NCBI GenBank assembly: GCA_902762955.1
Contig: CACWQH010000023.1
Coordinates: 1-39,496, forward strand
Source: an uncultured Lachnospiraceae bacterium
GTDB taxonomy: Bacteria; Bacillota; Clostridia; Lachnospirales; Lachnospiraceae
Length of the DNA stretch: 39,496 nt
Reading direction: 5' to 3'
The position numbers and the translations under genes were made by a program. Numbering within the stretch: position 1 is the stretch's first letter; each line of letters begins with the position of its first letter. The notes beneath the pieces are model-generated. The model was given only the letters and a program-made list of their open reading frames with translations, was not told the DNA's origin and ran no database searches. Shown piece by piece: positions 645 through 35,223 of the stretch.

Positions 645-747
645 CACATATCCCCTTCCATTATATTAAAATCAACTATTCTGATTATATCATAATAATT
701 CTTCAATGCAAAGAAAAAATTGCTTAATAAAATGTGTTTTTATAAAT

Positions 748-2604: not shown

Positions 2605-2697
2605 CGGAAAATATGTAATTCTTTTTTCCCTTGACTTTAAAATAAAAATATTGCAAAATATAACTCAACTATAATATTCATATTGAGAGATAAAAAA

Positions 2698-3663
2698 ATG
2701 AAAAAATTTAAAAATATTGATGAATTAATAACAGCATTAAAGGACGGTTCATTTGATGTCCCTGTTCATGTTGACAGAAAAAATAAAATGTTTATTCCTG
2801 TATTTAAAAAAATCATTTCTGATGAAAGAAAAACAGGCCGCGTTTTTTTTCTGAGTTATTTTTGTGCAGCATTTAAAATTCTTCGCAAGGGATATTGGCT
2901 TAACCATGTATATCCTAAAGAGCGCTGTGATAACTATGTAAAAGATACAAAAAGCGAACTCCTTTCACATGCAGATGATTATAAAAAAGCATATGAACTT
3001 CTTTGTGAGGATTCAAAAAAATTATATCTTGATCTTCTGTGTCTCAGATTAACGGGAGATTTTAATTACGTTATACCTCATTATAATCCAAATCCCCAAT
3101 ATCTTTCCGATAAACTATCCTGGAAGGACAGACCTAACATCGTTGATGCAGGTGGATATATAGGCGATACTCTTATATCCTTTATAGATGCCAATATAAT
3201 CCCCGGCTACTACAGAATATACGAATTAGATGATAAAAATTATATCAAGCTTTCCGGAAATGTTAAAAAAGCTCGTAAAATGGGGATAAAAGCTTCCGCT
3301 GTCAAAAAAGGGCTTTACTCAGATAATAAAACCTTATATTTTGTTGCCGATCGTGACAGTAGTCGTATTGTAGATTACAAAACAGATAACAATATAGATG
3401 TGGTAAAATTAGACAGTGATTTAAAATTTATTCCGGACTTCATAAAAATGGATATCGAGGGTTCAGAATTTGAAGCACTCAAAGGATGTGAAAAAATCAT
3501 CAAAAAATGTGCTCCTGTCTTAGCTATATGCATATATCATTTAAAAGACGATTTTAGAAGCATTCCTTTGCTGATAAAAGAGCTTAATCCGGAATACAAA
3601 AATTTTTGGATTGAACATTATCAACTCGGATATAACGAAACAGTTATGTACGTTTCAAAGTAA
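2698..3663 (+). CDS. FkbM-family SAM-dependent methyltransferase
   Basis: I choose the ATG at 2698 (321 residues), not the in-frame TTG at 2683, because GAGAGA at 2685-2690 is placed as the ribosome site for the ATG. A SAM-binding motif I (VDAGGYIGDT, about residues 149-158) and the FkbM signature IKMDIEGSEFEAL near residue 250 are intact. The N-terminal 140 residues are the extra domain found in long FkbM proteins of surface-polysaccharide loci. Family members O-methylate sugars or other small molecules. It is the only plus-strand gene among glycan genes and converges on the flippase gene, sharing a terminator with it. Its acceptor may be a sugar of the neighbouring glycan (inference). Confidence 0.8.
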   Translation: MKKFKNIDELITALKDGSFDVPVHVDRKNKMFIPVFKKIISDERKTGRVFFLSYFCAAFKILRKGYWLNHVYPKERCDNYVKDTKSELLSHADDYKKAYELLCEDSKKLYLDLLCLRLTGDFNYVIPHYNPNPQYLSDKLSWKDRPNIVDAGGYIGDTLISFIDANIIPGYYRIYELDDKNYIKLSGNVKKARKMGIKASAVKKGLYSDNKTLYFVADRDSSRIVDYKTDNNIDVVKLDSDLKFIPDFIKMDIEGSEFEALKGCEKIIKKCAPVLAICIYHLKDDFRSIPLLIKELNPEYKNFWIEHYQLGYNETVMYVSK

Positions 3664-5157: not shown

Positions 5158-5946
5158 CTATTTCGTATAAGTTTCATATGCTTTTTTATAAAACCTCATC
5201 AGAAACACGGTGAAAAAATGCGGCCAAAACTTATCAAACATTTCAATATCTTCGCGTATTCTTTCATTGTTGTCAATAAACGCTTTACTTGTTGCTTCAT
5301 CATGTATACGATAATATGCCAGTATTTTACTGTTATATAAAAAACCGCCTTTTGAATTTGCCAATTTATAAAATGTATCCCAGTCAATATTGAATTTCAA
5401 ATCAGATGTGAACACACTTTCCTTCAAGTTTTCCTTATCATATGTCACTGTAGGGCAACAGATACTGTTACCCAAAGACAGTGTAAGACGTTTAACAAAT
5501 CTATTATCAGAAAAAAGCTTAATCTTCATTGGTATTCTTAAAACCGCTCTGATAATACAATTGATATCCGTGGTAATCTTTGAGTCTTTTATCGGTCTGT
5601 AACCGCAATAATATATCAGCATTTTTTTATTATATTTTTTCAGTTTTTTGTACAACTCATAAGTATATCGTGAATTATAGCAATCATCCTGGTGTGCAAG
5701 TGTGACATACTTTGTATCAGCTGTATTATACGCAAAATTCCAATCATCTTTTATATTAGAAATTCCTGAATTCACATGTAGCTCAATATTATATTTTTCT
5801 GCAATATTTTTTATATAAGCATTGGGTGTGGATGTGCAAATAATAACCTTTGACTTCATCGTTTGATTCAAGATTGATTTTACACACATCTCAAGATACT
5901 TTGATTCTCCATAAGCACATATCGAAAAAGTATGTTCTTTAAACAT
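5158..5946 (-). CDS. family 2 glycosyltransferase (GT-A fold)
   Basis: A 262-residue protein. The N-terminus (TFSICAYGESKYLEMCVKSI) is the nucleotide-binding start of GT2 enzymes, and VTLAHQDDCY (residues 81-90) carries the acidic metal/nucleotide site QDD at 86-88. It continues with a GT2-like acceptor half ending in ILAYYRIHDEATSK. No membrane segment is evident, so a cytoplasmic, membrane-associated enzyme adding one sugar to a lipid-linked intermediate is expected. It lies 26 bases upstream of the flippase and follows the polyprenyl-P-sugar synthase closely. Sugar donor cannot be read from sequence. Confidence 0.8.
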   Translation of the reverse strand: MFKEHTFSICAYGESKYLEMCVKSILNQTMKSKVIICTSTPNAYIKNIAEKYNIELHVNSGISNIKDDWNFAYNTADTKYVTLAHQDDCYNSRYTYELYKKLKKYNKKMLIYYCGYRPIKDSKITTDINCIIRAVLRIPMKIKLFSDNRFVKRLTLSLGNSICCPTVTYDKENLKESVFTSDLKFNIDWDTFYKLANSKGGFLYNSKILAYYRIHDEATSKAFIDNNERIREDIEMFDKFWPHFFTVFLMRFYKKAYETYTK

Positions 5947-6936: not shown

Positions 6937-7908
6937 TTAAATATGAATACTGCCTGTTAACAAATCAATAACCTTTTCAGATGTTTTTTGGATACTATGT
7001 CGAACAAAGCAATATACTGACGATACTTTATATCTGTTAATCTTAATAATTTTTAAATAGGTTTTTAAATCTATACTTTTTTGCAAAAGATAAGAAGCAG
7101 TTGCAGCTTCAAAAAGCATAAACTCCGCACTCTTTTTTATTTCTTCATCCATATCATATTTGTACACATACCGCCTTAAATTATAAAAAGCCTTCATATA
7201 ATCATAATATTTTAATTCATTTGTTGCAGAAAAGCTGGAACCCTCATCAACTATATATCTGTATGCACCCATTTTTTCTTTTAAACAATATATTTTTCCC
7301 AAACTAAACAATGTCAACAACAGCATTCTGTCTCCGGGTCCGTATTTGTGTGCTTTGTACATATACTCATCTTTTATATGTTCTCTGATTTCTTTCATAT
7401 TTCTATAAAGCATCATAGATGTTTGTCCGGGAAGTATCCATTTTCTGTAATCTTTATGTGAATATATTCTTTTTTTACACTCCGGATATATTACATTTTT
7501 AAGAATTACTCCATTTTTGTCTACAGGATATAAGCCACATGTAACCGCAACATACTCAGGATTATTTTCAAGGAAATCCACCTGTTTTTGCAATTTTTTC
7601 TTATTAATCCAAAAATCATCCGTCTCAAGCAATGTAATATATTTCCCTTTTGCATTATCATATAATTCTATATTATTATCTAATGCGCCCCTATTTTTAT
7701 CTCTATAAAAAGGCTTTATTATATCAGGAAATTTCTTTACATATTTTTCTATTATATCTCTACTTTTGTCTGTAGAACAATCCTCCCCGATAAGTATCTC
7801 GTATTTAAAATTTACTTTTTGCATCAATACGCCATTAAGTGCTTTTCTTAAATACTTTTCATGATTGTAGGTAGAACAGCATATGCTTACCATTATTTCA
7901 TCATTCAC
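6937..7908 (-). CDS. family 2 glycosyltransferase
   Basis: A 323-residue GT2 protein: VSICCSTYNHEKYLRKAL at the N-terminus, GEDCSTDKSRD near residue 41-51, and ETDDFW (residues 95-100), the acidic site found in capsule and EPS GT2 enzymes. The C-terminal third is mostly helical without clear membrane spans. The start is a GTG at 7906-7908 with AAGGAG about 11 bases upstream; an ATG five codons further is the alternative. It lies between the DegT aminotransferase and the polyprenyl-P-sugar synthase. It may be the transferase for the modified amino sugar, by position only. Confidence 0.8.
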   Translation of the reverse strand: MNDEIMVSICCSTYNHEKYLRKALNGVLMQKVNFKYEILIGEDCSTDKSRDIIEKYVKKFPDIIKPFYRDKNRGALDNNIELYDNAKGKYITLLETDDFWINKKKLQKQVDFLENNPEYVAVTCGLYPVDKNGVILKNVIYPECKKRIYSHKDYRKWILPGQTSMMLYRNMKEIREHIKDEYMYKAHKYGPGDRMLLLTLFSLGKIYCLKEKMGAYRYIVDEGSSFSATNELKYYDYMKAFYNLRRYVYKYDMDEEIKKSAEFMLFEAATASYLLQKSIDLKTYLKIIKINRYKVSSVYCFVRHSIQKTSEKVIDLLTGSIHI

Positions 7909-7942: not shown

Positions 7943-9046
7943 TCATTTTCCCAAAACAGCCGTCACAATTCTATCTATGGTTTCATCCTTCAAGCCTTCA
8001 TAAATCGGCAACAATAAAACTTTTTTTGCTATATCTCTTGCGGTATTTAAATTATTATATTTATACTTATTTTTGAAACATGCATGATCTGCTGTTATAG
8101 GATAGAAATATTTTCTTGTATATATATCCTTTTCCATCAGCTTGTTATACAGTTCATCTCTGCTTATATGATATTTATCTTCAAGCACGATTGGATAATA
8201 TGCATAATTTGATTCGGTGTTATCGTTAAATTTTAAAAGCCTTATACCCTCAACCTCTTTAAAAGCATTAGTGTATTTTTCACTTACTCTTTTCCTATCA
8301 TTTATTGCCGAATCTATATGTTTAAGATTACACAATCCCATTATTGCTTCAAATTCATTCATCTTTGCATTTGCTCCGACAGATACTACCAATTCTTCGC
8401 TTCGGATTCCAAAATTTTTTAAATTATAAAGTTTTTCATATACCTCATGATTTTTACTGCATACTGCCCCGCCTTCAATAGTATTAAAAACTTTGGTAGC
8501 ATGAAAACTAAATACAGAGATATCTCCAAAGCCTGCAACACTTTTCCCCTTAAACGTCTCTCCAAAAGCATGGCAGGCATCATATATAACCTTCAATCCA
8601 TATTTGTCTGCTATATTTTGAATAGCATCTATATTACATATATTGCCATAGACGTGGACAGGAAGAATTGCAACTGTTTTCGGAGTAATTAATTCCTCTA
8701 TCTTTGTTTCATCTATAGTACCATCCGACTCTTTTATATCGCAGAAAATCGGATTCAAGCGATTTCTCACTATAGCATGTGTTGTGGAAACAAAGGTAAA
8801 CGGAGTTGTAATAATCTCGCTTCCCTCAGGAAAATCAAAAGACTGAATGGCAAGTTCAAGTGCCATATGTCCGTTTACCGTAAGACTTACCTCCGGCACA
8901 TCCAAATAGTCTTTTAATCTCTCCTCAAGTTCTCTGTGGTACTGCCCCATATTGGTAAGCCAATGTGACTCCCACAACGGTTTTATTGCCTCACAATATT
9001 CTTTATAAGACGGCATTGAAGAACGTGTCACGTATATTTTTTCCAA
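7943..9046 (-). CDS. DegT/DnrJ/EryC1 PLP aminotransferase, VioA/FdtB-like sugar 4-aminotransferase
   Basis: The TTG start (9044-9046) is supported by AAGGAG with 8-base spacing. The 367-residue protein shows the family layout: LTVNGHMALELA for phosphate binding, YDACHAFGE (D156, H159 near the pyridine ring), and SFHATKVFNTIEGG with the Schiff-base lysine at K185. These enzymes convert a nucleotide 4-keto-6-deoxy sugar to the 4-amino sugar. Overall look is closest to the dTDP-Qui4N type (VioA/QdtB), which I infer from memory of the family. The nucleotide-sugar genes (rmlA, rmlB) that would feed it are not in the window. With the formyltransferase directly upstream, dTDP-4-amino-4,6-dideoxyhexose is the likely product. 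Confidence 0.85.
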   Translation of the reverse strand: MEKIYVTRSSMPSYKEYCEAIKPLWESHWLTNMGQYHRELEERLKDYLDVPEVSLTVNGHMALELAIQSFDFPEGSEIITTPFTFVSTTHAIVRNRLNPIFCDIKESDGTIDETKIEELITPKTVAILPVHVYGNICNIDAIQNIADKYGLKVIYDACHAFGETFKGKSVAGFGDISVFSFHATKVFNTIEGGAVCSKNHEVYEKLYNLKNFGIRSEELVVSVGANAKMNEFEAIMGLCNLKHIDSAINDRKRVSEKYTNAFKEVEGIRLLKFNDNTESNYAYYPIVLEDKYHISRDELYNKLMEKDIYTRKYFYPITADHACFKNKYKYNNLNTARDIAKKVLLLPIYEGLKDETIDRIVTAVLGK

Positions 9047-9111: not shown

Positions 9112-9963
9112 TTAAACAATTTCACGTAACGTACATTTTAAGCAATTCTCTTTATATTTAATAATTAATTCATTATCTTTTATTTCTTTTTCATCACATA
9201 TGTTTTTTTCCTCGTTCAGACTTTTTTTATAGTTGATAATCTCATAAACCTTTCCGTTATGATTCATTCTTGGCAGCCTCATAACACTTGTTCCCGAATA
9301 ATCCATCGAACGTAAAAAAGCATATATTTTTTTAAAATTCCAATTCAAGTCAATATATCCATCATTTGGCAATTCACTTTTCAAATATAATTTTGTTTTA
9401 GAATTTTGAGGTTCATATGTTGTATACGTCTCATTGATAAAGCATTTTAAATTATCTTCAAAAAGCCTGACGCCTTCTTGAAAACATCTTTGCATAAGTT
9501 TAATAGCGTTATCATCTTCGCCTATCATAATTTTCTTTTGAACTATTATCTTTCCGCAATCTATCTCACTGCTAACAATATGCCAGGTAACTCCGGTATA
9601 TTGTTCTTCATTATAAATCGCCCATGTAGGGGCGTTCATTCCACGATATTCCGGAAGATATGCTATATGAAGATTTAAAATCGTAAGATTGTTTTTTTCA
9701 CATACATCCGGCGGAAAAATATACGAATTGTGGACACTTATAATTAAAGTCTTTTCTTCAAGACTTAATAAAAAATCTCGTATGCTTCTCTTATCATAGC
9801 GTCTAAATGGTATATTTAATCTTTCACATAATTTTTCAGTAAAAGCAAATTTTTCGGAAACAACTTCTATGTACTCAACTTCAATATTGTTTTTTGAAAA
9901 AACGCGCAAGCAATCATCAGCGATTCTTCCATTGCCTATCAAATAAATATGTTTATAGAGCAT
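9112..9963 (-). CDS. Fmt-fold N-formyltransferase (sugar amine or aminoacyl-carrier substrate)
   Basis: 283 residues. The catalytic triad of 10-formyl-THF-dependent formyltransferases is visible: N97 and H99 in LNLHIAYLPEYRG, and D135 in SSEIDCGKI; GVTWH also matches the Fmt/ArnA/VioF pattern. The N-terminal part is Rossmann-like. A C-terminal region (YIDLNWNFKKIYAFLRSMDY) resembles the post-catalytic region of sugar formyltransferases (INWSKPAEEIHNFIRAL-type). ATG start behind GAGGT. Two roles fit the neighbours: formylation of a 4-amino-deoxy sugar made by the DegT enzyme (VioF/FdtF type), or formylation of an amino acid on the carrier protein (as the F domain of gramicidin synthetase does). 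The first is more common. Confidence 0.78.
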   Translation of the reverse strand: MLYKHIYLIGNGRIADDCLRVFSKNNIEVEYIEVVSEKFAFTEKLCERLNIPFRRYDKRSIRDFLLSLEEKTLIISVHNSYIFPPDVCEKNNLTILNLHIAYLPEYRGMNAPTWAIYNEEQYTGVTWHIVSSEIDCGKIIVQKKIMIGEDDNAIKLMQRCFQEGVRLFEDNLKCFINETYTTYEPQNSKTKLYLKSELPNDGYIDLNWNFKKIYAFLRSMDYSGTSVMRLPRMNHNGKVYEIINYKKSLNEEKNICDEKEIKDNELIIKYKENCLKCTLREIV

Positions 9964-10005
9964 TACATCTACCTCAATTATTTTACATAATCATATAATC
10001 AGATA

Positions 10006-11073
10006 TTAGAATTTTGATTCTATTATTTCGCAATAATCCAATTCACCAATATTCATAAACATAACTCCCCATGTCAGTCCCGATCCAAAAGCCGACAAAC
10101 AACACATGTTCTTTTTACTCAGCAATTCTTCTTTGCAATTGTAAATTGCAGTAAACGGTATTGAAGCTCCACTCAGATTTCCATAGTTTTCAACCAAATT
10201 CATAGGCAGTTTTTCTGTAGGAAGTCCTGACTTTTCGGCTAGTTTTTGAAGCATAAAACGATTAGGCTGATGAAGCAAAAACCAATCAAAGTCATCTATA
10301 TTTTTTCCTTCCCTTTCAAATACATCCTTAAACATCGGAGGGACTTCGGTCTGAACGAAATTAAACACTCCGCTGCCATCCATATGAAGATTATCCAGGC
10401 TTCTAAAATTCCCGTCTCCCTGGTCCTGCATTGCCCCCGTTTCAGGCGTACTTGGTTTTCTAAAAGCTCCTGCCGGAATTATCAAAGCATCTCCTCTTTT
10501 ACCATCCGTATGCATCTCATAATATATTTCATCCTCACCGCCGTTTTCCAGAATAGTTATCGAGCAGCCATCACCAATAAGCGGGAAATCATTCCTGTCT
10601 TGTTTTGAAACCTTATGGCTTAAAACATCGCCATTAATCAATACTATCTTTTTATCTTCCATATGTTCCAGAAGCATAAAGGATTGCATCAACCCTACCA
10701 GGAACCCGCTGCATCCTTGTGCTATATCAAAGCAAATGACATCTGTATCCAAATCACATTCAGCCTGTACAATATTACTGATATGAGGGACAAAATAATC
10801 CGGACACAAAGTGACAGTAACTACAGCACCTATCTCTTCTTTTTTTATCCATTCATTATCCAACATGTAATTTAAACCATACACCGCAAAATCTGATACG
10901 GTGGATGTTTCTTTAGCCAATCTGTGTTGGTTATATCCCATGATTTTCTTAAGTCTCATAGTCTGTTTTGCAGGGAACGAGTAATTATCTACTTCATCAT
11001 CAAAATTCCCTATCGTTTCAGGCAGAATTCCGAGCATGGAAGATACTCTTTTACCCTTAAATGATGTTATCAT
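10006..11073 (-). CDS. 3-oxoacyl-ACP synthase III-like ketosynthase (FabH family)
   Basis: 355 residues, slightly longer than housekeeping FabH. The active-site triad is complete: C121 in DIAQGCSGFLVG, H268 in FLLHQPNRF (usual HQAN is HQPN here), and N299 in NYGNLSGASIP. Fold landmarks such as GDGCSITIL are present. FabH enzymes condense a primer acyl thioester with malonyl-ACP. Its ATG overlaps the stop of the upstream carrier-protein gene (TAATG), so the two are translationally coupled, which points to use of that carrier. Placement among adenylating enzyme, reductase and FabD-like genes argues for a dedicated short-chain acyl line, not general fatty acid synthesis. Confidence 0.88.
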   Translation of the reverse strand: MITSFKGKRVSSMLGILPETIGNFDDEVDNYSFPAKQTMRLKKIMGYNQHRLAKETSTVSDFAVYGLNYMLDNEWIKKEEIGAVVTVTLCPDYFVPHISNIVQAECDLDTDVICFDIAQGCSGFLVGLMQSFMLLEHMEDKKIVLINGDVLSHKVSKQDRNDFPLIGDGCSITILENGGEDEIYYEMHTDGKRGDALIIPAGAFRKPSTPETGAMQDQGDGNFRSLDNLHMDGSGVFNFVQTEVPPMFKDVFEREGKNIDDFDWFLLHQPNRFMLQKLAEKSGLPTEKLPMNLVENYGNLSGASIPFTAIYNCKEELLSKKNMCCLSAFGSGLTWGVMFMNIGELDYCEIIESKF

Positions 11074-11306
11074 TATGATTTACCCCCAGACTTTTTAACC
11101 AACTCAACAATTACATCAACTGACGAAAAATTCTCAGGAACAATATCCAAACCATCAACCTTACACTCATATTTTTCCTCAAGCATAGATACAAGTGAAA
11201 TTATATCAAAAGAATCCAATAAACCATCCATTACAAAATCATCACTATCTTCAAAATCGAATTCAGGACGAAGTTCATTCAACATCTCCATAATCTGCTC
11301 GTTCAT
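11073..11306 (-). CDS. acyl/peptidyl carrier protein (DltC-like), partner of the adenylating enzyme
   Basis: The ATG at 11304-11306 is chosen (77 residues): GGAGG at 11316-11320 lies 9 bases upstream, overlapping the end of the adenylation gene, whose stop is only 4 bases before this start. The phosphopantetheine site is GLLDSFDII with Ser32; a DSF rather than DSL context with a short acidic body resembles DltC and stand-alone peptidyl carriers. Sandwiched between adenylating enzyme (upstream) and KAS III (1-bp overlap downstream), it is the likely carrier of the aminoacyl starter. That pairing is inferred from gene order. Confidence 0.85.
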   Translation of the reverse strand: MNEQIMEMLNELRPEFDFEDSDDFVMDGLLDSFDIISLVSMLEEKYECKVDGLDIVPENFSSVDVIVELVKKSGGKS

Positions 11307-11310
11307 TACT

Positions 11311-12822
11311 TTAACCTCCAATTTGTTCTTTTAGTTTTTTTCTATCTATTTTTCCGTTCATATTAATCGGCATTGATTCCAATCTATGATATATGTTTGG
11401 CAGCATATATTCCGGTAATAACGTATTCAAATACTTTCGCAAATCATCTTCTCCAATGGTACCAACATAGAAGAGGACCAGACAATCCTTTGAAGCATCA
11501 TGCAGACAGCAGTTACTCCTGATTTCCGAATTTGAGAACACTGCAGTTTCAATCTCACCAAGCTCTATTCTGTGTCCGGTGTGTTTTATCTGGCTATCAA
11601 TCCTTCCATCGTATATAATTTCTCCAATTTCGTTATAATGAACAATATCACCCGTACGATAAATCAACTCATGATAAAGATTGTTAAGCGGATTCTGCAC
11701 AAATGCTGCCGCTGTTTTTTCCGGATTATTATAGTAACCCATAGAAAGTGATGAACCTCTGACACACAACTCGCCCTTCTCATTTGTCTTCACAAGCTCA
11801 TTATTATCATTTAGAACCAACACGTCTGTATTCATGCAGGCATAACCAATCGGCACAGATTCATCATCTTTTATCTCACGGTCAACAATATAATATGTAC
11901 AGTCAACAGTAATCTCCGTCGGTCCGTAAAGATTGGCAAAAGTTGCATCCGGCAACCTCTTAATCCATGCATTAAGCTGCCTTGCCGGCATCACCTCACC
12001 GGCAAAAAGCACTTTTTTAAGGCAGTCAATCTCGCACTTATCCAACAAATCCAGATCAGCCACACGAGACAGGACTGTAGGTACCCAAAATATGGTGTTA
12101 ACCTTATGATCTCTTATATATTCAAGCAGTCTTATCGGAAACGAATACATCATCTGTGGTATTACATGAAGAGTAGCCCCGTTACGTAAAGTACTATAAA
12201 TATCCAATACAGAATTATCAAAGTAAAACGGTGCCTGATTTCCGATTATTGTGTTATGGTCAAAATGAAATGTCTCTCCCACCCACTCCGTATAGTCTAT
12301 CACGGAGCGATGCGTAATAATTACACCTTTCGGTATACCTGTTGATCCCGAGGTGAAAAGTACGTACAGAATATCAGTATCTATGATTCTACTCTCAGCC
12401 GTCTTTACAGCAGCTGTATCATCAGTCTCCAGATTTTTCTCAATCAAATCCTCATAGATAACATATTCTCCACCAATTTCAATTGCTTTTTTCTCATTTT
12501 TTTTATCGATAATAATCACCGAAGGCTCAAACGTTTCCAAAATCTTCTCAACTCTGTTCTTCGGCATCTTTGTATCAATAACCGTATAATAGTTTCCCGA
12601 TAAAGCTATTCCCATAAAAGCAGAAATGCTTCCGACACCTTTATCCATCATCACGGCAACAGGTTTCTTAAACAAATCTCTCGATACTAAATCAAATGCA
12701 ATATGCTCAGCTTCAACAAGTGTTTCAGAATATGTAAGAGTATTTTTTTGATCTACAAATGCCGGATAATCCGGATATTTCTCCACAGAATCTCTCAAAT
12801 ACTGTGTTACAATGTGCAGCAT
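11311..12822 (-). CDS. stand-alone amino-acid adenylation enzyme (DltA/NRPS A-domain family)
   Basis: 503 residues, the usual DltA length. Core motifs in order: A3 FTSGSTGIPKG (residues 156-166), A4 APFYFDNSVLDIY with D202 at the place that binds the substrate alpha-amine in A domains, A5 YGPTEIT (299-305), A7 YRTGD (388-392), A8 GRIDSQIKHTGHRIELGEIE (406-425), and A10 NMNGKID with catalytic Lys491. So it should activate an amino acid with ATP and load it on a carrier, most likely the one 4 bases downstream. There is no dltB or dltD nearby, so D-alanylation of teichoic acid is unlikely. Pocket positions read by eye (D-N-L / F / L-A / L-V-D) do not match a code I can name. ATG start with GGAGG. 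Confidence 0.87.
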   Translation of the reverse strand: MLHIVTQYLRDSVEKYPDYPAFVDQKNTLTYSETLVEAEHIAFDLVSRDLFKKPVAVMMDKGVGSISAFMGIALSGNYYTVIDTKMPKNRVEKILETFEPSVIIIDKKNEKKAIEIGGEYVIYEDLIEKNLETDDTAAVKTAESRIIDTDILYVLFTSGSTGIPKGVIITHRSVIDYTEWVGETFHFDHNTIIGNQAPFYFDNSVLDIYSTLRNGATLHVIPQMMYSFPIRLLEYIRDHKVNTIFWVPTVLSRVADLDLLDKCEIDCLKKVLFAGEVMPARQLNAWIKRLPDATFANLYGPTEITVDCTYYIVDREIKDDESVPIGYACMNTDVLVLNDNNELVKTNEKGELCVRGSSLSMGYYNNPEKTAAAFVQNPLNNLYHELIYRTGDIVHYNEIGEIIYDGRIDSQIKHTGHRIELGEIETAVFSNSEIRSNCCLHDASKDCLVLFYVGTIGEDDLRKYLNTLLPEYMLPNIYHRLESMPINMNGKIDRKKLKEQIGG

Positions 12823-12869
12823 TATTCTGCCCTCCTTTTATAATAGTCAAAGCTGTTATATTGATTTTT

Positions 12870-13613
12870 TTATTTGCTTCGCTCAGTAATATCTATTGTA
12901 CGCCCGCCATCAACAATTATTTGCTGTCCTGTAATCCATCCTGCTTTATCTGAAACAAGAAACTCAACTACAGGCACAATATCTTCAGGTTTACCTATTC
13001 CCAGCGGACTATTATATTCGAATTCTTCTTTGATTTTTTCATCGTTAAATATTTCTTTTGTCATTTCTGTAATCATTCCACCGGGAAGAACCGAGTTTAT
13101 CCTTACATCCGGAGCCAATTCAACGGAAAGATTTCTCATCAATCCATCCAATCCGGCTTTTGAGGAACCATAAACACTAAATGCCGATGCCCCCCGTTCA
13201 CTAATATTACTGGATATAAAGACAACAGATTTTAAATTCTTGGCATTAGCCTTTCTGGACACCAATACTTTAATAATCATTTGTGCCGAAAAAACATTAG
13301 TCGAAAATGTTTCATATATTATCTTAGCATCGACACTACGTATCGGCATCATTTTCATCAATCCGGCACAATGAACAAAGGATTTAACTGTAATATCTTT
13401 TCCTTTTAACCACTCAGTTAAATCCTTTTCAATTGTATCAACTTTCGTCAAATCATACTGCCAGATAAATGTCTTATTTAAACATTTTTCTTTCGTACTT
13501 TCTAAACGTTCTGTATCTCTGCCATTCAAAATCAAATTATAAGATTTTGATAAACTAATAGCCAACTCTCTTCCTAAACCGGAAGAAGCTCCTGTTACAA
13601 GAACACATTCCAT
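12870..13613 (-). CDS. short-chain dehydrogenase/reductase, FabG-like 3-oxoacyl-carrier reductase
   Basis: I place the start at ATG 13611-13613 (247 residues), since the protein then begins at the first beta strand of the Rossmann fold (MECVLVTGASSGLG). The NAD(P) motif TGASSGLG is at 7-14, the NNAG motif is HCAG at 81-84, and the catalytic set is N106, S135, Y148 and K152 (YGSSK). The end (WITGQQIIVDGG) is the standard classical-SDR terminus. In this operon it most likely reduces the beta-keto product of the KAS III enzyme to a beta-hydroxyacyl thioester, as VioR-like reductases do in viosamine acyl-group synthesis. A role in sugar reduction cannot be excluded. Confidence 0.85.
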   Translation of the reverse strand: MECVLVTGASSGLGRELAISLSKSYNLILNGRDTERLESTKEKCLNKTFIWQYDLTKVDTIEKDLTEWLKGKDITVKSFVHCAGLMKMMPIRSVDAKIIYETFSTNVFSAQMIIKVLVSRKANAKNLKSVVFISSNISERGASAFSVYGSSKAGLDGLMRNLSVELAPDVRINSVLPGGMITEMTKEIFNDEKIKEEFEYNSPLGIGKPEDIVPVVEFLVSDKAGWITGQQIIVDGGRTIDITERSK

Positions 13614-13687
13614 CTTAATCACCAACCATATCAATTATTGTGTAGTAATCAGCAATAAACCGATCTCAATATTTCGATTCAAATCTA

Positions 13688-13906
13688 TCACTCCATATAA
13701 TTAAGAATGTCCCCTATTGTCTTAAATCCCTTTATTTCTTCTGACGTAAGCACTTTTCCAAATTCTTCTTCCATCATAACAATCAAAGAAAGCTTAGTCA
13801 TAGAATCATACTCCTCAATGTCTTCAAGCTGCATATCGGCATTAAGGGCGCCTTCTTCAACATCAAATGTTTCTTCCAGTAATACTATCTTTTCTTTTTC
13901 TGACAT
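13688..13906 (-). CDS. acyl carrier protein, first of two in the operon
   Basis: Start ATG 13904-13906 is chosen over the in-frame ATG at 13936, because two AAGGAG-like sites lie between them and the nearer one serves this start. The 72-residue acidic protein has the carrier fold pattern with EEYDSMTKLSLI, where Ser35 is the phosphopantetheine attachment site (DSM in place of DSL). The end GFKTIGDILNYME is typical of ACP helix IV. Directly downstream of the FabD-like gene, it is the likely acceptor of the malonyl or methylmalonyl extender, separate from the DltC-like carrier (inference). Confidence 0.85.
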   Translation of the reverse strand: MSEKEKIVLLEETFDVEEGALNADMQLEDIEEYDSMTKLSLIVMMEEEFGKVLTSEEIKGFKTIGDILNYME

Positions 13907-13981
13907 GATTATTTCTCCTTTATTTCTCCTTTTCATATAATTACCGGTATAATTAATTATTGTGTCCGATAAAACTTATCC

Positions 13982-14848
13982 TTATATTGATATACACTTT
14001 GGTTTTATCGTAATTGCCTTATTCATCTTCCTAAGGACCTGTCCGCATCCACATTCATAAAACATTTCAACGCCCAAATCCTTCATGCATAAAATACTGT
14101 CATACCATCTGACTTGTCCTGTAATTTGTTTTATAAGATTATTCTTTATTTCATCTATATCTTTTGTTGGTTTTCCTGTTATATTTGAAACAACATATGC
14201 TTTTGGCGCATTAAATATAAGGGCATTTATTTCTCTCTCCATAATCTTAGCTGCCTCACTCATATGCGGACTATGGAAGGCAGCACTGACATTTAGTCTC
14301 TTTACCTTTACACTTTCGTCATTAAGATATTTTCTCTCAAACTCCTCTATTGCCTGAACACTTCCTGAAATAACTATCTGCATTTTTGTATTGAGATTTG
14401 CCATAACCGCATCTTCCGTCAATTGTTTTTCCAACACTTCTTCTTCAAGTCCCATAACAGCAGCCATAGTACCCTTTCCATTTTGCTCAGACATAACTCT
14501 TCCCCGCTTATCAACAAGTTTTAAGCCATTTTCAAAATCAAATACTCCTGCTGCATACAAAGCGCTATACTCTCCCAGACTATGTCCGGCAACGTATTCA
14601 TAATTTATCCCTTCCTGCCTTGCTTTTTCAAGATACATAGCGGAACAGGTATAGATAGCTGCCTGGGCAAATTTTGTATCAGTAAGTTTTTCTATAGGCC
14701 CGTTAAACATAAGTTCTTTTAAGTTATATCCAAGCACATCATTTGCAGTTTCAAGTATCTGCTTTGCAGCAATATTGGTTTCATATAATTCTTTACCCAT
14801 TCCGATTGCCTGTGAACCCTGTCCCGGAAACAAAAAAGCATTATTCAT
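13982..14848 (-). CDS. malonyl-CoA:ACP transacylase (FabD-like)
   Basis: 288 residues against about 305 for housekeeping FabD. FPGQGSQ at the N-terminus, nucleophile Ser90 in VAGHSLGEYSAL, the extender carboxylate-binding Arg115 in KRGRVM, and catalytic His192 in AAFHSPHM are all present, so a carboxylated acyl-CoA (malonyl or methylmalonyl) is the expected donor. Acceptor would be the carrier encoded 75 bases downstream. It is not in a fabHDGF cluster and lies between sugar acyltransferase-like genes and a reductase, so it probably belongs to the specialised acyl line. The protein could back up fatty acid synthesis as well. Confidence 0.9.
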   Translation of the reverse strand: MNNAFLFPGQGSQAIGMGKELYETNIAAKQILETANDVLGYNLKELMFNGPIEKLTDTKFAQAAIYTCSAMYLEKARQEGINYEYVAGHSLGEYSALYAAGVFDFENGLKLVDKRGRVMSEQNGKGTMAAVMGLEEEVLEKQLTEDAVMANLNTKMQIVISGSVQAIEEFERKYLNDESVKVKRLNVSAAFHSPHMSEAAKIMEREINALIFNAPKAYVVSNITGKPTKDIDEIKNNLIKQITGQVRWYDSILCMKDLGVEMFYECGCGQVLRKMNKAITIKPKCISI

Positions 14849-14873
14849 TTTTTACCTCTTCTAAATTTCACAA

Positions 14874-15524
14874 TTAATTTTCTATTGCTTTCATTCTCTT
14901 CGCAGGATTTCCAAGAACCGTTGTTCCTTTTTTTACGTTTGTAAAAACTATACTTCCCGCTGCAATTGTTGCATTTGAACCTATTTTACGATGAGGAACA
15001 ATAAACACATGTCCCCCGATATTTACCTCTGAGCCTATTTCACAATAACCACCAATATCGGTAGAGGTCATTATAGTTGTATAGTCACCTATACGAGTAT
15101 CATGTCCAATCATTATATTTCCGTTAAGCAATACTCCATCACCGATCTCACAATTAACAGAAACTGCAGTCTTAATACATATAATACAACCGGTTCCAAT
15201 AATTGTGTTTGTTCCAATCATAGCGTCAGGTGCAATAAGTGTTTCTATTTTTATTCCATTTTCCAGCAGTCTTTTCTGAATCTTTGCCTTAGCACCGGCA
15301 TTTCCTATTGCAACAGTGCATACGACATCGTCTTTATGTTTGTAAAGCCAGCTTTCATCTCCAAGCCAAGGATAATTATTGATCAACTGTCCTTCATAGA
15401 AATTATCTCCTTCAGAAACAAATCCTACAATTTCATAAACAGGTTTTTCTTTATTTATGTTTTCTATCAACTGAGCAACTTCCCTGCCAAGACCTCCGGC
15501 GCCGTATATCACTATCTTCTTCAT
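14874..15524 (-). CDS. NeuD/PglD-family left-handed beta-helix acyltransferase (active-site His present)
   Basis: 216 residues with two parts: an N-terminal Rossmann-like sugar-nucleotide-binding domain (MKKIVIYGAGGLGREVAQLI) and a hexapeptide-repeat beta-helix from about residue 95. The catalytic His of NeuD/PglD is H141 in NGNIMIGHDTRIGDY, and the C-terminus NVKKGTTVLGNPAKRMK is the usual cofactor-binding end. Family enzymes transfer acetyl from acetyl-CoA to a sugar hydroxyl or amine. In this operon the acyl donor could be the beta-hydroxyacyl or aminoacyl thioester on one of the carriers (inference). It lies 25 bases before fabD and follows its own paralogue. Confidence 0.85.
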   Translation of the reverse strand: MKKIVIYGAGGLGREVAQLIENINKEKPVYEIVGFVSEGDNFYEGQLINNYPWLGDESWLYKHKDDVVCTVAIGNAGAKAKIQKRLLENGIKIETLIAPDAMIGTNTIIGTGCIICIKTAVSVNCEIGDGVLLNGNIMIGHDTRIGDYTTIMTSTDIGGYCEIGSEVNIGGHVFIVPHRKIGSNATIAAGSIVFTNVKKGTTVLGNPAKRMKAIEN

Positions 15525-15551
15525 ATACCCTCCAACAATAACTCATAATTA

Positions 15552-16136
15552 TCATTTTAATGTGGTCCCAAAATCAACATTTTTATTATCTTCCAGTTTT
15601 AAATGCGGACCTATGATACATCCTGCGCCAAGGTTACATGCCTTTCCCACATCAACCCTTTCTCCGATCATTGTTCCAAACATAACCGAAACATATTTAC
15701 TTATATTACAATCATTGCATATTACTGCATGAATATACAGAAGTACGAAATCGTCTATCTTGGTATTTACTGAAACAGTCACATGCGGAAAAATGACTGA
15801 CCCTTTTCCGACAGGGCTGGTAGATGCTATAACTGCTGTAGGATGTATTATGGTTTCCCATGAATCAAAATCCGGATGTTCCTCGACAATCCTTCTTCTT
15901 GCATCCCCGTCCTGAATAGCTATAACAGCTGATACAGGTGTTTCTTTGGCAATTTTTTCCAAAGCACCAATATCACCAATCACCTTATACCCATAAAACT
16001 CTCCACCATCCTTATACTTATAGTCATCTAAAAAACCCAGCACAAGGTATGTCGGTTTAATCTTGTTTATATCCTCTATGAGCCACACAACCTCTCTTCC
16101 GAGATCACCGGCTCCTATTATCACGATATTTTTCAT
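15552..16136 (-). CDS. NeuD/PglD-like beta-helix protein lacking the catalytic His and the C-terminal coil
   Basis: I choose ATG 16134-16136 (194 residues; a GTG one codon upstream is possible) behind TAAGGAG, where the TAA is the stop of the upstream gene. It is a clear paralogue of the protein at 14874-15524 (shared IVIxGAGxLGREVxxLIExIN and ETxIxPxAxI blocks). Aligned by eye without gaps, the catalytic GHD becomes CND, with Asn141 where the partner has His141. The chain also ends after FGTTLK, about 25 residues before the NV..GTTVxGNPA coil that binds CoA in the family. It may be a non-catalytic subunit forming mixed trimers, or use another residue (a His at 136 is near). Confidence 0.8.
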   Translation of the reverse strand: MKNIVIIGAGDLGREVVWLIEDINKIKPTYLVLGFLDDYKYKDGGEFYGYKVIGDIGALEKIAKETPVSAVIAIQDGDARRRIVEEHPDFDSWETIIHPTAVIASTSPVGKGSVIFPHVTVSVNTKIDDFVLLYIHAVICNDCNISKYVSVMFGTMIGERVDVGKACNLGAGCIIGPHLKLEDNKNVDFGTTLK

Positions 16137-16147
16137 CACTTCACTCC

Positions 16148-17692
16148 TTAAAGTGGAATATTTCCATGAATATATGATAATTCACTTCGTTCCTTACTGC
16201 TTAAGCTTTCAAACGCTGAGCGAATCTTTCTTCGCGTTTCTTCCGGTGTAATCACTTCATCTATAATTCCAAGTTTTGCAGCCGAATACGGAGACATAAA
16301 TTTTTCGTTAAATTCCTTGATTTTTTCTTCTCTTGTCTTTTCTTTATCATCAGACTCATCAAGCTCATGTTTATACATGATATTGACTGCACTTTCCGCA
16401 CCGGTTACTGCGATCTGGGCAATTGGCCAGGCATAAACAATATCTGCCCCCATACCCTTACTATTCATAGCAATATAAGCACCGCCATATGCTTTACGAA
16501 GAATAAGACTAACCTTTGGAACGCTCGCTTCACAATAAGCATAAAGAAGCTTCGCTCCTCTTCGGATTATTCCGCCTTTTTCCATCTTCACACCGGGCAA
16601 AAATCCCGGAACATCAATCATTGTCAAAAGAGGAATTCCAAAACAATCACAACATCTTACAAATCTTGCTGCTTTTTCACCTGCATCTATATCAAGTGCT
16701 CCGGCAAGATGTATAGGATTTGATGCAACTATGCCCACCACTTCCGAGTCAATTCTGCAAAAGCCTATTACGATACTCCTTCCAAAATCTTTATGAATTT
16801 CAAAGAAACTGTCTTCATCTACCAAGGTACTTATAATCTTATGAACATCATATCCGGTCCTTTGATTATCTGATACAATATTCTGCAATTCCGAAGAATT
16901 ATCACGAGCCTTTCCTATGATTCTTACAGGCTTTTCTCTATAATTTTTCGGAAGATATGAAAGCAGTTTTTTTACTCCATCCAAACACTCGTATTCATTT
17001 TTATAGTTAAAATGTGCAACTCCGCTATATTTATTGTGAGTCTGGGCACCGCCAAGTTCCTCAGCGGATGTTTCCTCACCCATTATCGTCTTAACAACCA
17101 CCGGACCTGTCAGATACATTTGACTTGTCTTATCAACCATAAACACGAAATCACACAATGCAGGTCCATAACATGCTCCACCTGCACATGGTCCCATAAC
17201 TACAGCAATTTGCGGAATTTTCCCTGATGCTCTTGTATGTCTCAAAAACATATCTCCGTATCCGTCAAGACCGGTTATTCCTTCTTCCATCCTTGCTCCA
17301 CCGGAATCATTTATTGTAATAAACGGTGCCTTCGACTGAAAAGCCATATCCATTATTCTGACAATCTTTCTGCTATGATATTCTCCATACGTTCCACCCA
17401 TAACTGTAAAATCTTCCGCAGCTATATATACAGGTTCTCCATTAATTGTTCCAAAGCCCGTGACAACGCCATCTCCCGGTAATTTTTTCTTATCCATTCC
17501 GAAATCCGTGAAACGGGACTCTATCAAAGAACCAACTTCCTGAAAAGATCCATCATCAAACAAATAATCTATGCGTTCCCAAACAGATAGTTTACCTTTA
17601 TTATGCTGAATCTTTATTTTTTCGGCACCACCACCGGCTTTAGCCTTTTCTCTTTTTATATTTAATTCATCCAGATATTTTGAATCCCACAT
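16148..17692 (-). CDS. acyl-CoA carboxylase carboxyltransferase (PccB/MmdA family)
   Basis: ATG 17690-17692 is preferred (514 residues); a GTG two codons upstream is 4 bases from GGAG and less suitable. The crotonase-fold halves are both present: acyl-CoA oxyanion site NDSGGARMEEG and MGPCAGGACYGPAL in the N-half, and MIDVPGFLPG and RKAYGGAYIAMNSKGMGAD in the C-half. The family transfers carboxyl between carboxybiotin and acetyl- or propionyl-CoA, or forms part of Na+-pumping methylmalonyl-CoA decarboxylase. No biotin carboxylase, biotin carrier or membrane subunit gene is seen nearby. As first gene of the acyl/glycan operon it may supply malonyl- or methylmalonyl-CoA to the FabD-like enzyme (inference). 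Confidence 0.88.
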   Translation of the reverse strand: MWDSKYLDELNIKREKAKAGGGAEKIKIQHNKGKLSVWERIDYLFDDGSFQEVGSLIESRFTDFGMDKKKLPGDGVVTGFGTINGEPVYIAAEDFTVMGGTYGEYHSRKIVRIMDMAFQSKAPFITINDSGGARMEEGITGLDGYGDMFLRHTRASGKIPQIAVVMGPCAGGACYGPALCDFVFMVDKTSQMYLTGPVVVKTIMGEETSAEELGGAQTHNKYSGVAHFNYKNEYECLDGVKKLLSYLPKNYREKPVRIIGKARDNSSELQNIVSDNQRTGYDVHKIISTLVDEDSFFEIHKDFGRSIVIGFCRIDSEVVGIVASNPIHLAGALDIDAGEKAARFVRCCDCFGIPLLTMIDVPGFLPGVKMEKGGIIRRGAKLLYAYCEASVPKVSLILRKAYGGAYIAMNSKGMGADIVYAWPIAQIAVTGAESAVNIMYKHELDESDDKEKTREEKIKEFNEKFMSPYSAAKLGIIDEVITPEETRRKIRSAFESLSSKERSELSYIHGNIPL

Positions 17693-17748: not shown

Positions 17749-17757
17749 ATTATAACA
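17749..17757 (-). promoter_or_regulatory. extended -10 promoter element for the acyl/glycan operon
   Basis: Minus-strand TGTTATAAT (TGn plus a perfect TATAAT) lies about 57 bases upstream of the carboxyltransferase start. No good -35 is present 17 bases upstream, which an extended -10 can tolerate. Confidence 0.45.
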
Positions 17758-17797
17758 TAAATATTATTTTTAATATACATTTTTTTCTTGGAAAAGC

Positions 17798-17855: not shown

Positions 17856-18479
17856 TTGGATACTTTTAAACATCCCCTTTCACAAGAGGAAGAACGTCAT
17901 TATCTCCTTTTAAGCAAGCAGGGAGATATAGAAGCCAGAAATACGCTTGTAGAATATAATCTTAGACTTGTTGCACATATAGTGAAAAAATATCAGACTG
18001 CAGAAAGAAGCACCGAAGACCTGATTTCTATAGGTACTATAGGACTTATAAAAGCAGTCAACACCTATGATATAGATAAAGGAAACCGACTTGCCACATA
18101 TGCTTCAAGGTGTATCGAAAACGAACTACTTATGAGGCTCAGGCAAGAGCGCAAAGAATCAAGAGAAATCTCATTATATGAACCAATCGGAACAGACAAA
18201 GAGGGTAATGAGATAAGCCTTATGGACATAATTAAAAATGATGATGAAAATGTTTTAATAGATATAATCCACAATGATAATTTAAGCTATGTATCAAAGA
18301 TTTTTAATAAAGTATTAGATAAACGCGAACAGGAAATAATAGCTATGCGCTATGGCTTGGGCGGAAATGATGAGATGACACAAAAAGAAGTTGCAAAAAT
18401 GCTCGGCATCTCCAGATCATATGTTTCCCGTATAGAGAAAAAAGCGCTGCTAAAACTCAGGAGCGCTTTACTCTTATAA
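17856..18479 (+). CDS. sigK: RNA polymerase sigma factor, SigK-like, without a membrane pro-sequence
   Basis: 207 residues from a TTG at 17856 with GAGG 8 bases upstream. Region 2 reads RNTLVEYNLRLVAHIVKKYQ and EDLISIGTIGLIKAVNTY, then ATYASRCIENELLMRLR; the linker has PIGTDKEGNEISLMDII; region 4 ends in TQKEVAKMLGISRSYVSRIEKKAL. All match late mother-cell sigma factor SigK of sporulating Bacillota. In Bacillus SigK has about 20 extra hydrophobic N-terminal residues cleaved by SpoIVFB; here the protein starts right at the mature region (MDTFKHPLSQEEE), as reported for C. difficile. Its 3' end overlaps the trhP-like gene tail-to-tail by 23 bp. SigE is a less likely alternative. Confidence 0.8.
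   Translation: MDTFKHPLSQEEERHYLLLSKQGDIEARNTLVEYNLRLVAHIVKKYQTAERSTEDLISIGTIGLIKAVNTYDIDKGNRLATYASRCIENELLMRLRQERKESREISLYEPIGTDKEGNEISLMDIIKNDDENVLIDIIHNDNLSYVSKIFNKVLDKREQEIIAMRYGLGGNDEMTQKEVAKMLGISRSYVSRIEKKALLKLRSALLL
18438..18469 (-). terminator. terminator of the ireB-trhP operon embedded in coding sequence
   Basis: AAAGCGCT (18441-18448) pairs with AGCGCTTT (18462-18469). On the minus strand it is followed by six T's (A-run 18438-18443). The hairpin spans the last codons and stop of the U32 gene and the end of sigK. Confidence 0.7.
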
Positions 18480-35040: not shown

Positions 35041-35092
35041 AGTTTTGCACCTCCTATTTTATTTATAATGAAGCTGCAAATATATACGAAAG

Positions 35093-35217: not shown

Positions 35218-35223
35218 AGTGAC

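What the first reader, a model, noticed from the sequence alone, without database searches (positions are those of the whole stretch)
9112..17692. Dedicated FAS/NRPS-like acyl assembly line inside a surface-glycan operon
One minus-strand run encodes carboxyltransferase, two beta-helix acyltransferase-like proteins, FabD, two carrier proteins, SDR reductase, amino-acid adenylating enzyme, KAS III and formyltransferase, followed by a sugar aminotransferase, three glycosyltransferases and a flippase. Most of these catalytic sites are intact. Known parallels: viosamine genes for Pseudomonas syringae flagellin (KAS III-, reductase- and carrier-like genes making a 3-hydroxybutanoyl amide on Qui4N) and anthrose. 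Adding an amino-acid adenylation enzyme plus a second carrier to such a set is, to my knowledge, not a standard described pathway. Proposed logic: aminoacyl-carrier starter, (methyl)malonyl extender, one condensation, ketoreduction, then transfer to an amino sugar.
Basis: partly seen in the sequence, partly recalled or inferred. Interest (0 to 1): 0.85.

Follow-up and report, generated by a model that had tools for sequence, protein, structure and literature searches.

The report
Amino-acid-primed acyl builder for surface sugars
A bacterium carries, beside its type IV pilus genes, a compact set of enzymes that probably loads an amino acid on a carrier protein, lengthens it like a tiny fatty acid and hangs it on a surface sugar; the amino-acid-loading and joining enzymes recur together in other bacteria.

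Summary
The gene set is real and ordered as described. Its plan is that of the Pseudomonas viosamine island (aminotransferase, KAS III, reductase, carrier, NeuD-type acyltransferase) plus an amino-acid adenylating enzyme, a second carrier, FabD, a carboxyltransferase and a formyltransferase. The KAS III belongs to a well-supported subfamily, "KAS3B" (100/100). All 15 KAS3B loci found carry an adenylating enzyme and a PCP-like carrier; 0 of 7 loci with only other glycan-type KAS III carry both (controls not random). Three of the 15 were found after the pattern was noticed. Cys-His-Asn is kept in 15 of 15. Best reading: aminoacyl-PCP primes one condensation with malonyl-ACP; the SDR reduces; NeuD2 moves the product to a 4-amino sugar. 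Corrections: NeuD1 lost its catalytic His; the formyltransferase's target is undecided; clorobiocin's CloN genes already show much of the logic. The cluster is a variable 17-kb island between pilB and a sigma-factor gene. The chemistry is untested. New variant of a known kind.

The parts
3..647 (-). pilB N-terminal part (type IV pilus assembly ATPase), left flank of the island; runs off the contig
   Evidence: 98% identical over 214 aa to the pilB-position protein of same-genus genome G023; the homologue in G026 is T2SSE/MshEN by Pfam
748..2529 (-). 593-aa membrane protein, probably a polyprenyl-phosphate-sugar-dependent GT-C (inference)
   Evidence: no Pfam or NCBIfam match; sequence read; homologues beside the sigma gene in G004 (50%) and G024 (36%)
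2683..3663 (+). FkbM-type methyltransferase, opposite strand inside the island
   Evidence: PF05050
3698..5131 (-). MOP/Wzx-type flippase
   Evidence: PF13440 305 bits; NCBIfam O-glycosylation flippase 256 bits, below cut-off 720
5158..5946 (-). GT2 glycosyltransferase
   Evidence: PF00535
5966..6928 (-). GtrB/PgfS/ArnC-like GT2, probable polyprenyl-phosphate sugar transferase
   Evidence: PgfS 238.6 and ArnC-type PRK10714 142.9 bits, both below cut-offs
6937..7908 (-). GT2 glycosyltransferase
   Evidence: PF00535; TuaG-like, below cut-off
7943..9046 (-). DegT-family sugar aminotransferase, probably forming a 4-amino-6-deoxy sugar
   Evidence: PF01041 332 bits; DesI 273.5 and PseC 223.2 bits, below cut-offs; FHATKVFN
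9112..9963 (-). formyltransferase (FMT); subfamily otherwise seen only in two other KAS3B loci
   Evidence: PF00551; N97/H99/D135 invariant with L048 and L044 homologues; in 325 order genomes only the window and G161 (both in the profile's seed) exceed 400 bits, next best 126
10006..11073 (-). KAS III of subfamily KAS3B, putative condensing enzyme using aminoacyl-PCP
   Evidence: ACP_syn_III; C121/H268/N299; clade 100/100
11073..11321 (-). PCP-like carrier (aminoacyl carrier); ORF as listed, first ATG at 11306
   Evidence: PP-binding 20.2 bits, just below cut-off; OlsHI-ACP-like and DltC-like weak hits; LLDSF; overlaps KAS III by one base; ATG position
11311..12822 (-). stand-alone amino-acid adenylating enzyme
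   Evidence: TIGR01733 343.3 bits, cut-off 317.4; pocket letters D-N-L-F-L-A-L-V-D-K, same in 4 other full A enzymes and one partial, of 17 compared
12870..13634 (-). SDR ketoreductase
   Evidence: PF13561; clade 100/100 with SDRs of L021, L026, L043, all KAS3B loci
13688..13936 (-). ACP-like carrier (malonyl/product carrier)
   Evidence: PP-binding 28.4 bits; YDSM
13982..14848 (-). FabD-type malonyl transferase; the only FabD match in the assembly
   Evidence: TIGR00128 298 bits; own-genome search
14874..15524 (-). NeuD2, VioB/PglD-type sugar N-acyltransferase, GHD kept
   Evidence: TIGR03570 173.9 bits above cut-off; closest solved VioB 7txp
15552..16139 (-). NeuD1, degenerate PglD/VioB-like protein (His lost, short C-terminus)
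   Evidence: CND instead of GHD, also in the L054 homologue but not in L023
16148..17698 (-). acyl-CoA carboxylase carboxyltransferase (PccB type), malonyl or methylmalonyl supply
   Evidence: PF01039 585 bits; solved propionyl-CoA carboxylase beta 594.7 bits; 84% identical homologue in L054 beside a NeuD1 homologue
17856..18479 (+). sigma-70-type factor gene (sigK-like by my reading), right flank of the island
   Evidence: Sigma70_r2 and r4; matched in 23 of 26 genus genomes, up to 95% identical; close to pilB in relatives

Best explanation
A dedicated, dissociated NRPS/type-II-FAS hybrid makes one amino-acid-derived acyl group for an amino sugar of a surface glycan. Steps: (1) the A enzyme loads an amino acid on the PCP (inferred from family; the pairing is shown by co-occurrence in 15 of 15 loci). 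(2) The carboxyltransferase, with biotin carboxylase and BCCP encoded elsewhere, makes malonyl-CoA, and FabD loads it on the ACP (inferred). (3) KAS3B takes the aminoacyl group from the PCP onto its Cys and condenses it with malonyl-ACP (inferred from triad, subfamily and co-occurrence). (4) The SDR reduces the keto group to a beta-hydroxy-gamma-amino acyl-ACP (inferred). (5) NeuD2 transfers it to the 4-amino group made by DegT (inferred from the viosamine precedent). (6) The formyltransferase caps an amine, either that of the aminoacyl chain, which would stop ring closure, or that of a sugar (undecided). (7) The glycosyltransferases, the PgfS/ArnC-like enzyme and the flippase build and export the glycan, perhaps onto pili, since the island abuts pilB.
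For: A + PCP in 15 of 15 KAS3B loci against 0 of 7 loci with only other glycan-type KAS III (Fisher 6e-6; control loci not randomly drawn; 6 of the 15 loci gave seeds to the A profile). Linkage survives rearrangement: PCP touches KAS3B in 11 loci and lies 1.6-6.5 kb off in L022, L026, L042, L043, with KAS3B pairs 39-80% identical. Three loci were out of sample. In 7 loci a KAS3A gene is also present, so KAS3B is not the only priming enzyme there; in the window it is the only KAS III match in the assembly. Cys-His-Asn in 15 of 15, as in the 5 usable FabH rows; the KSIII-type transferases ChlB3 and CerJ use Cys-His-Asp (PMC9573744, passages). Malonyl supply: PccB-type carboxyltransferase in the window and, of another kind, AccDA-type in L042 and L065; in L065 it lies one gene from KAS3B, the only KAS III scored there. 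SDR in 13 of 15 loci; the window SDR clades only with SDRs of KAS3B loci. Minimal cassettes A-PCP-KAS3B-ACP-NeuD in L046 and L047 suggest the chain of transfer. Pocket letters are identical among class I A enzymes 47-61% identical to the window's. Odds raised from 0.5 to 0.55 when one search showed the two further carboxyltransferases.
Against: L046 (a 6.8-kb contig) and L047 show no SDR, FabD or carboxyltransferase, nor does the rest of the L047 contig downstream, so the module can exist without the reduction and perhaps without condensation. FabD was scored in 2 of 15 loci, a carboxyltransferase of either kind seen in 3 of 15. DegT in only 6 of 15, though several contigs are short. The amino acid is not predicted. 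Co-occurrence could be co-inheritance of an operon. The passage on ChlB3 that I used also says His and Asp residues serve Claisen-like condensation in KSIII enzymes, and DpsC condenses with Ser-His-His, so the triad argument is modest. No structure prediction was possible. A free aminoacyl thioester may cyclise, so a cap is assumed.
Confidence: 0.55

Rival explanations
1. KAS3B is a carrier-to-carrier shuttle, as reported for CloN2: it moves an unextended aminoacyl group from PCP to ACP, and the NeuD enzyme then puts it on the sugar.
For: Same part list as clorobiocin: CloN4 activates proline on CloN5, CloN2 transfers to second carrier CloN1, CloN7 acylates a deoxysugar (PMC11218499, passages). 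Minimal cassettes L046/L047 show no reductase or malonyl genes.
Against: KAS3B keeps the FabH-type triad in 15 of 15 where two transferases have Cys-His-Asp; the window operon supplies malonyl and a reductase with no other KAS III in the assembly; L065 likewise has carboxyltransferase, SDR and ACP with KAS3B alone.
Confidence: 0.17
2. KAS3B makes a C-N bond: an acyl-S-KAS intermediate is attacked by the amine of aminoacyl-PCP, giving an N-acyl-aminoacyl group (such as 3-hydroxybutanoyl-alanyl, recalled as a known polysaccharide substituent).
For: KSIII-like acyltransferases that form C-N bonds are stated to exist (PMC9573744, passage).
Against: FabH-type triad intact; a GNAT-like protein X (11 of 15 loci) or FMT (3 of 15, one of them with X too) already offers an amine-capping enzyme.
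Confidence: 0.12
3. Two separate pathways share the operon: an ordinary viosamine-type 3-hydroxybutanoyl pathway (KAS III, ACP, SDR, NeuD2) and an independent aminoacyl or formyl modification (A, PCP, FMT, NeuD1).
For: The viosamine island has exactly the first set (PMC3927599, passages). Two NeuD-like genes are present.
Against: The KAS III is not of the KAS3A group but of KAS3B, tied to A + PCP in 15 of 15 even where a KAS3A is present as well. NeuD1 lost its His, leaving one competent NeuD.
Confidence: 0.1

Closest known systems
Pseudomonas syringae viosamine island (vioA, vioS, vioR, acp, vioB; PMC3927599, passages seen)
   Same: Sugar aminotransferase, KAS III, ketoreductase, one ACP and a NeuD-type N-acyltransferase in one glycan island; product an N-(3-hydroxy-1-oxobutyl) viosamine on flagellin, supported by mutants and MS
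   Different: Seven ORFs listed, with no adenylating enzyme, PCP, FabD, carboxyltransferase or formyltransferase; its KAS III was not available for my tree
Clorobiocin CloN4/CloN5/CloN2/CloN1/CloN7 (PMC11218499, passages seen)
   Same: Amino acid activated on one carrier, passed by CloN2 (a KAS III homologue by recall) to a second carrier, then transferred to a deoxysugar
   Different: Antibiotic, not surface glycan; proline is oxidised to a pyrrole; no malonyl, reductase or condensation named; attached to a hydroxyl
FAS-like genes in flagellin glycosylation islands of Enterobacteriaceae and Aeromonas (PMC4875605, PMC7874193; passages seen)
   Same: Carrier, reductase and AMP-forming ligase in flagellar glycan loci
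   Different: LuxE/LuxC, fatty-acid ligases or an 'AMP-dependent synthetase'; no amino-acid adenylation or KAS III named in the passages seen
Linear gramicidin synthetase LgrA formylation-adenylation module
   Same: A formyltransferase-like domain with an amino-acid adenylation domain; both window proteins hit LgrA
   Different: Window enzymes are separate proteins; the FMT profile scores higher against solved sugar formyltransferases (102 bits) than LgrA (58 bits)
Campylobacter jejuni Cj1299-Cj1308 region
   Same: acpP2 and Cj1308 are listed as putative acyl carrier proteins (PMC6338021, passage); FabH2 and an amino-acid-activating enzyme there are recalled, not checked
   Different: Not compared by sequence here; function not established in what I saw

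Membership tests
viosamine-type N-acylation island | DegT aminotransferase, KAS III, ketoreductase, ACP and NeuD-type transferase together | tested here: met
viosamine-type N-acylation island | KAS III of the same group as VioS | tested here: inconclusive
   KAS3B clade 100/100 apart from 17 other glycan-type KAS III rows, but VioS itself was not in the tree
viosamine-type N-acylation island | product is a 3-hydroxybutanoyl amide of a 4-amino sugar | not testable with these tools
   needs MS/NMR
FabH (housekeeping KAS III) | Cys-His-Asn triad | tested here: met
   15 of 15 KAS3B; 5 of 5 usable FabH rows
FabH (housekeeping KAS III) | score above the curated FabH cut-off and clade with FabH | tested here: not met
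   TIGR00747 141 bits against 292; separate clade
DltA D-alanine ligase | score above TIGR01734 cut-off | tested here: not met
   322.6 bits against 559.85
amino-acid adenylation (TIGR01733) | score above cut-off | tested here: met
   window 343.3 against 317.4; of five other KAS3B-locus A enzymes checked, two are above and three just below (297-314)
multimodular NRPS | peptide condensation (C) domain | tested here: not met
   no condensation-domain match in the ten operon proteins scanned
CloN-type sugar acylation | A enzyme, PCP, KAS III, second carrier and sugar acyltransferase in one cluster | tested here: met
   barest form in L046
CloN-type sugar acylation | KAS III shuttles without condensation | not testable with these tools
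   triad and carboxyltransferases argue otherwise
NeuD/PglD/VioB N-acyltransferase | catalytic His of the GHD motif (role recalled) | tested here: inconclusive
   NeuD2 met, NeuD1 not met
flagellin glycosylation island | adjacent to flagellin genes | tested here: not met
   window abuts pilB; L045 does lie near a flagellin gene

The most novel reading that the evidence does not exclude
A recurring 'type II' aminoacyl-primed ketide module that builds beta-hydroxy-gamma-amino (statine-like) acyl amides, or their lactams, on surface sugars of pili, flagella and wall glycans: a class of bacterial glycan substituent whose building route has not been described, with swappable amino-acid specificity, capping enzyme (GNAT-like X or formyltransferase) and transferase (NeuD or AT3 type).
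Probability: 0.4. Interest if true: 0.82.

Novelty: new variant of a known kind. Interest (0 to 1): 0.62.

Why it matters
Bacterial surface sugars carry many odd N-acyl groups, and for many the building route is not known to me. If this module works as proposed, it joins amino-acid activation to one round of fatty-acid-type chain building for glycan decoration, gives a sequence signature (KAS3B with HQPN, plus A and PCP) to look for such decorations in genomes, and supplies small separate enzymes that take amino acids as primers for KAS III.

Tried and rejected
Housekeeping use of the genes: considered because the assembly (88.9% complete) has no other FabD match, KAS III match or KAS I/II match. 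Rejected as the main reading because KAS3B and the adenylating enzyme are not FAS enzymes; most likely the FAS locus is missing from the assembly, but loss in the organism is not excluded.

Formyltransferase target: the profile search against solved structures favours sugar enzymes (GDP-perosamine type 102 bits, LgrA 58), while in 325 genomes the next relatives after the two KAS3B loci are formylation domains at the start of two NRPS-like ORFs (126 and 123 bits) and one stand-alone enzyme (119 bits). Left undecided.

Amino acid prediction: pocket letters were read by motif matching from recalled GrsA positions; they fit no code I recall, so no amino acid is claimed.

Acyl slot: AT3-type in 8 and NeuD-type in 4 of 15 loci, never both (P 0.026), 3 with neither. 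Suggestive only.

Promoter-like sites were fewer than in shuffles (33 against 44.6); terminator-like sites 10 against 4.6, all 10 inside genes. The longest inverted repeat (33 nt, 24 matches, AT-rich) has one arm in each gap flanking the island; 2 of 300 plain shuffles of the two gaps reach 24. Picked after the fact, so only noted. Rfam: only the L10 leader.

Rows dropped: 4 of 9 FabH rows (L008, L011, L013, L018) were cut short by my start-finding script and left out of the trees. The partial KAS3A at the edge of L026 was not used in the trees. Control loci are 7: L023 plus the loci of the six genomes listed below 300 bits; not a random draw. One control (L053) has a PCP-like carrier without the A enzyme. 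Genomes with KAS3B above 300 bits: 6 of 392 order, 5 of 398 phylum; at E <= 1e-80, 6 of 397 family, 5 of 391 class. These draws overlap and all include G000 and G026. L025 and L026 came from genome contigs; the Synergistaceae label of L026 may be a binning error.

Literature: searches (open-access library only) listed nothing that I recognised as an A + PCP + KAS III module in a glycan locus; this is from listings and passages, not whole papers.

Full report
What is there. The window is one contig (G000:C23) of an assembly of 2.65 Mb, 88.9% complete, low in G+C. From 17698 leftwards one minus-strand run encodes carboxyltransferase, NeuD1, NeuD2, FabD, ACP, SDR, amino-acid adenylating enzyme, PCP, KAS III, formyltransferase, DegT, three GT2 glycosyltransferases and a flippase. 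Genes are close: the PCP stop overlaps the KAS III start by one base. The motifs I looked for are present in all but NeuD1, which reads CND where NeuD2 reads GHD, and which ends early.

Where it sits. The first 647 bases of the window hold the start of pilB, 98% identical to that of a same-genus genome. I fetched the matching site from eight same-genus genomes. In five, pilB lies 62 to 2003 bases from the sigma gene; in the window the gap is 17208 bases. In G004 the site holds the glycosyltransferase and flippase half without the acyl genes; G021 holds other genes there; in G024 the fetched stretch starts with other genes and does not reach pilB. G026, the one other genus member with a close (74%) KAS3B, has its cluster between pilB and the U32 gene. 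The cluster is thus a variable island beside a type IV pilus operon. That hints at a pilus or surface glycan, but position is not proof of target.

Is the combination more than chance? I defined KAS3B as the relatives of the window's KAS III scoring far above other KAS III proteins and gathered 15 loci: the window, G026 and G013, ten further genomes from order, phylum, family and class draws, and two loci from genome contigs. KAS3B forms one clade, support 100/100, apart from 17 other glycan-type KAS III rows (KAS3A) and 5 FabH rows. It has a private motif, HQPN in place of HQA[NQ]. All 15 loci carry an adenylating enzyme scoring at least 250 bits against my profile (seeded from six of them) and a PCP-like carrier; none of the seven loci with KAS3A only has such an adenylating enzyme, and one of the seven (L053) has a PCP-like carrier (Fisher 6e-6 for the pair). 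The AMP-binding proteins of L051, L053 and L054 score at most 175 bits against TIGR01733, whose cut-off is 317; five A enzymes of other KAS3B loci scored 297 to 345, two above and three just below that cut-off. The first 12 loci suggested the rule; the last three (L065, L066, L067) were found afterwards and all fit. The order of the genes differs among loci, and in L042 the pair lies 6.5 kb from KAS3B, so inheritance of one frozen operon does not by itself explain the link.

What KAS3B may do. Its Cys, His and Asn are kept in 15 of 15, as in the five usable FabH rows. In the passages I saw, the KSIII-type acyltransferases ChlB3 and CerJ use a Cys-His-Asp triad and DpsC a Ser-His-His one (PMC9573744). 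This favours a condensing enzyme over a mere transferase but does not prove it: DpsC condenses with another triad, and the same paper gives Asp a role in condensation. The reductase speaks the same way: an SDR is in 13 of 15 loci, and the window SDR forms a clade (100/100) with SDRs of L021, L026 and L043. Those three loci each have a KAS3A (partial in L026) with another SDR besides, as if each KAS had its own reductase. Malonyl supply points the same way. In the window, KAS3B is the only KAS III match in the assembly and the operon brings a FabD, the only match in the assembly, and a PccB-type carboxyltransferase. L042 and L065 carry a different, AccDA-type carboxyltransferase (ACCA 378 and 361 bits); in L065 it is separated from KAS3B only by X, and no other KAS III was scored there. 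In the window's genome the needed biotin carboxylase and a BCCP-like gene are encoded elsewhere. Two cassettes near the base of the KAS3B clade in a midpoint-rooted tree, L046 and L047, are just A, PCP, KAS3B, ACP and NeuD in order: they suggest the chain of hand-over, and they are also the best argument for the shuttle rival, since no reductase or malonyl gene was found with them (L046 is a 6.8-kb contig; the rest of the L047 contig was checked).

The amine problem. A free aminoacyl chain after condensation could close to a lactam (chemical inference). Eleven of 15 loci carry a conserved protein X, and none of the 7 KAS3A-only loci does. Five of its 11 scanned members match the GNAT family PF00583 at E up to 1, best 5e-12. 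The window has no X, and a formyltransferase follows KAS3B directly; L048 has a formyltransferase of the same subfamily between A and PCP, and L044 has both X and one. This suggests a capping slot filled by X or by the formyltransferase, though L046 and L047 have neither. Against it, the formyltransferase neighbours DegT in the window and resembles sugar enzymes best among solved structures, and the trio DegT, formyltransferase and ArnC-like GT2 recalls the arn pathway. I leave its target open.

Which amino acid. Pocket letters fall into a class shared by the window, L046, L022, one enzyme of L026, one of L048 and, as far as readable, L047 (D-N-L-F-L-A-L-V-D-K), a second class in seven loci (D-I-F-F-W-A-L-L-D-K) with two near variants, and two odd ones, 17 enzymes in all. 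Identity of the letters among class I enzymes that are only 47 to 61% identical to the window's suggests one conserved substrate, but I cannot name it.

Comparison with what is known. The Pseudomonas viosamine island has the aminotransferase, KAS III, reductase, ACP and NeuD-type transferase, and mutants with MS tie it to N-(3-hydroxy-1-oxobutyl) viosamine (PMC3927599, passages). The window works like it, with an aminoacyl primer system added and a separate KAS III subfamily (VioS itself was not in my tree). The clorobiocin CloN genes already show amino acid, first carrier, CloN2, second carrier, sugar transferase (PMC11218499, passages). FAS-like genes in flagellin glycosylation islands are described (PMC4875605, PMC7874193, passages). 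So each piece has a precedent; the joining of amino-acid activation, condensation and surface glycan, as a recurring module, I did not find in my searches (listed under Tried and rejected).

Verdict. The co-occurrence is strong; the chemistry is inference. I rate it a new variant of a known kind with fair interest because the question is directly testable with six small proteins.

Noticed in passing
G000:C5:43567-43890 (L056:487-2451 +): Biotin carboxylase whose 654-aa frame continues into what reads like a cytidylate-kinase-type domain (my reading, no search); an unusual fusion in the same genome.
   Followed up: no
whole assembly G000: No KAS I/II match, no second FabD and no second KAS III match in the assembly: the FAS locus is either in the missing tenth or lost.
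   Followed up: partly
window 711-743 and 17757-17789: AT-rich imperfect inverted repeat (24 of 33) with one arm in each gap flanking the island; 2 of 300 plain shuffles of the gaps reach it. Perhaps chance, perhaps a trace of how the island moves.
   Followed up: partly
window 35083-35225 (-): Ribosomal protein L10 leader, 75.8 bits.
   Followed up: no
window 24352-25698 (+): GT87-like membrane glycosyltransferase on the opposite strand between housekeeping genes.
   Followed up: no
L047:394-3669: Adenylation gene of a KAS3B cassette is interrupted by a transposase-like gene (873-2474, minus strand), so this copy is probably dead.
   Followed up: no
L052:561-12379 (-): Glycan locus with biotin-carboxylase-like, biotin-carrier-like, carboxyltransferase, FkbH-like, MaoC-like, FabD and KAS III genes (several by reading): looks like another polyketide-like sugar-acyl assembly line, without A or PCP.
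   Followed up: partly
L021, L022, L025, L026, L042-L045, L065-L067 (11 loci): Conserved GNAT-like protein X, weakly matched by Pfam in part of its members, found in 11 of 15 KAS3B loci and in none of the 7 KAS3A-only loci.
   Followed up: partly
L072 and L073 (G133, G174): NRPS-like ORFs of 5758 and 5381 aa that begin with a formyltransferase-like domain.
   Followed up: no
window 15552-16139 and L054:16679-17329: NeuD1 pair that lost the catalytic His yet stays beside carboxyltransferases 84% identical to each other: a possible non-catalytic role.
   Followed up: partly
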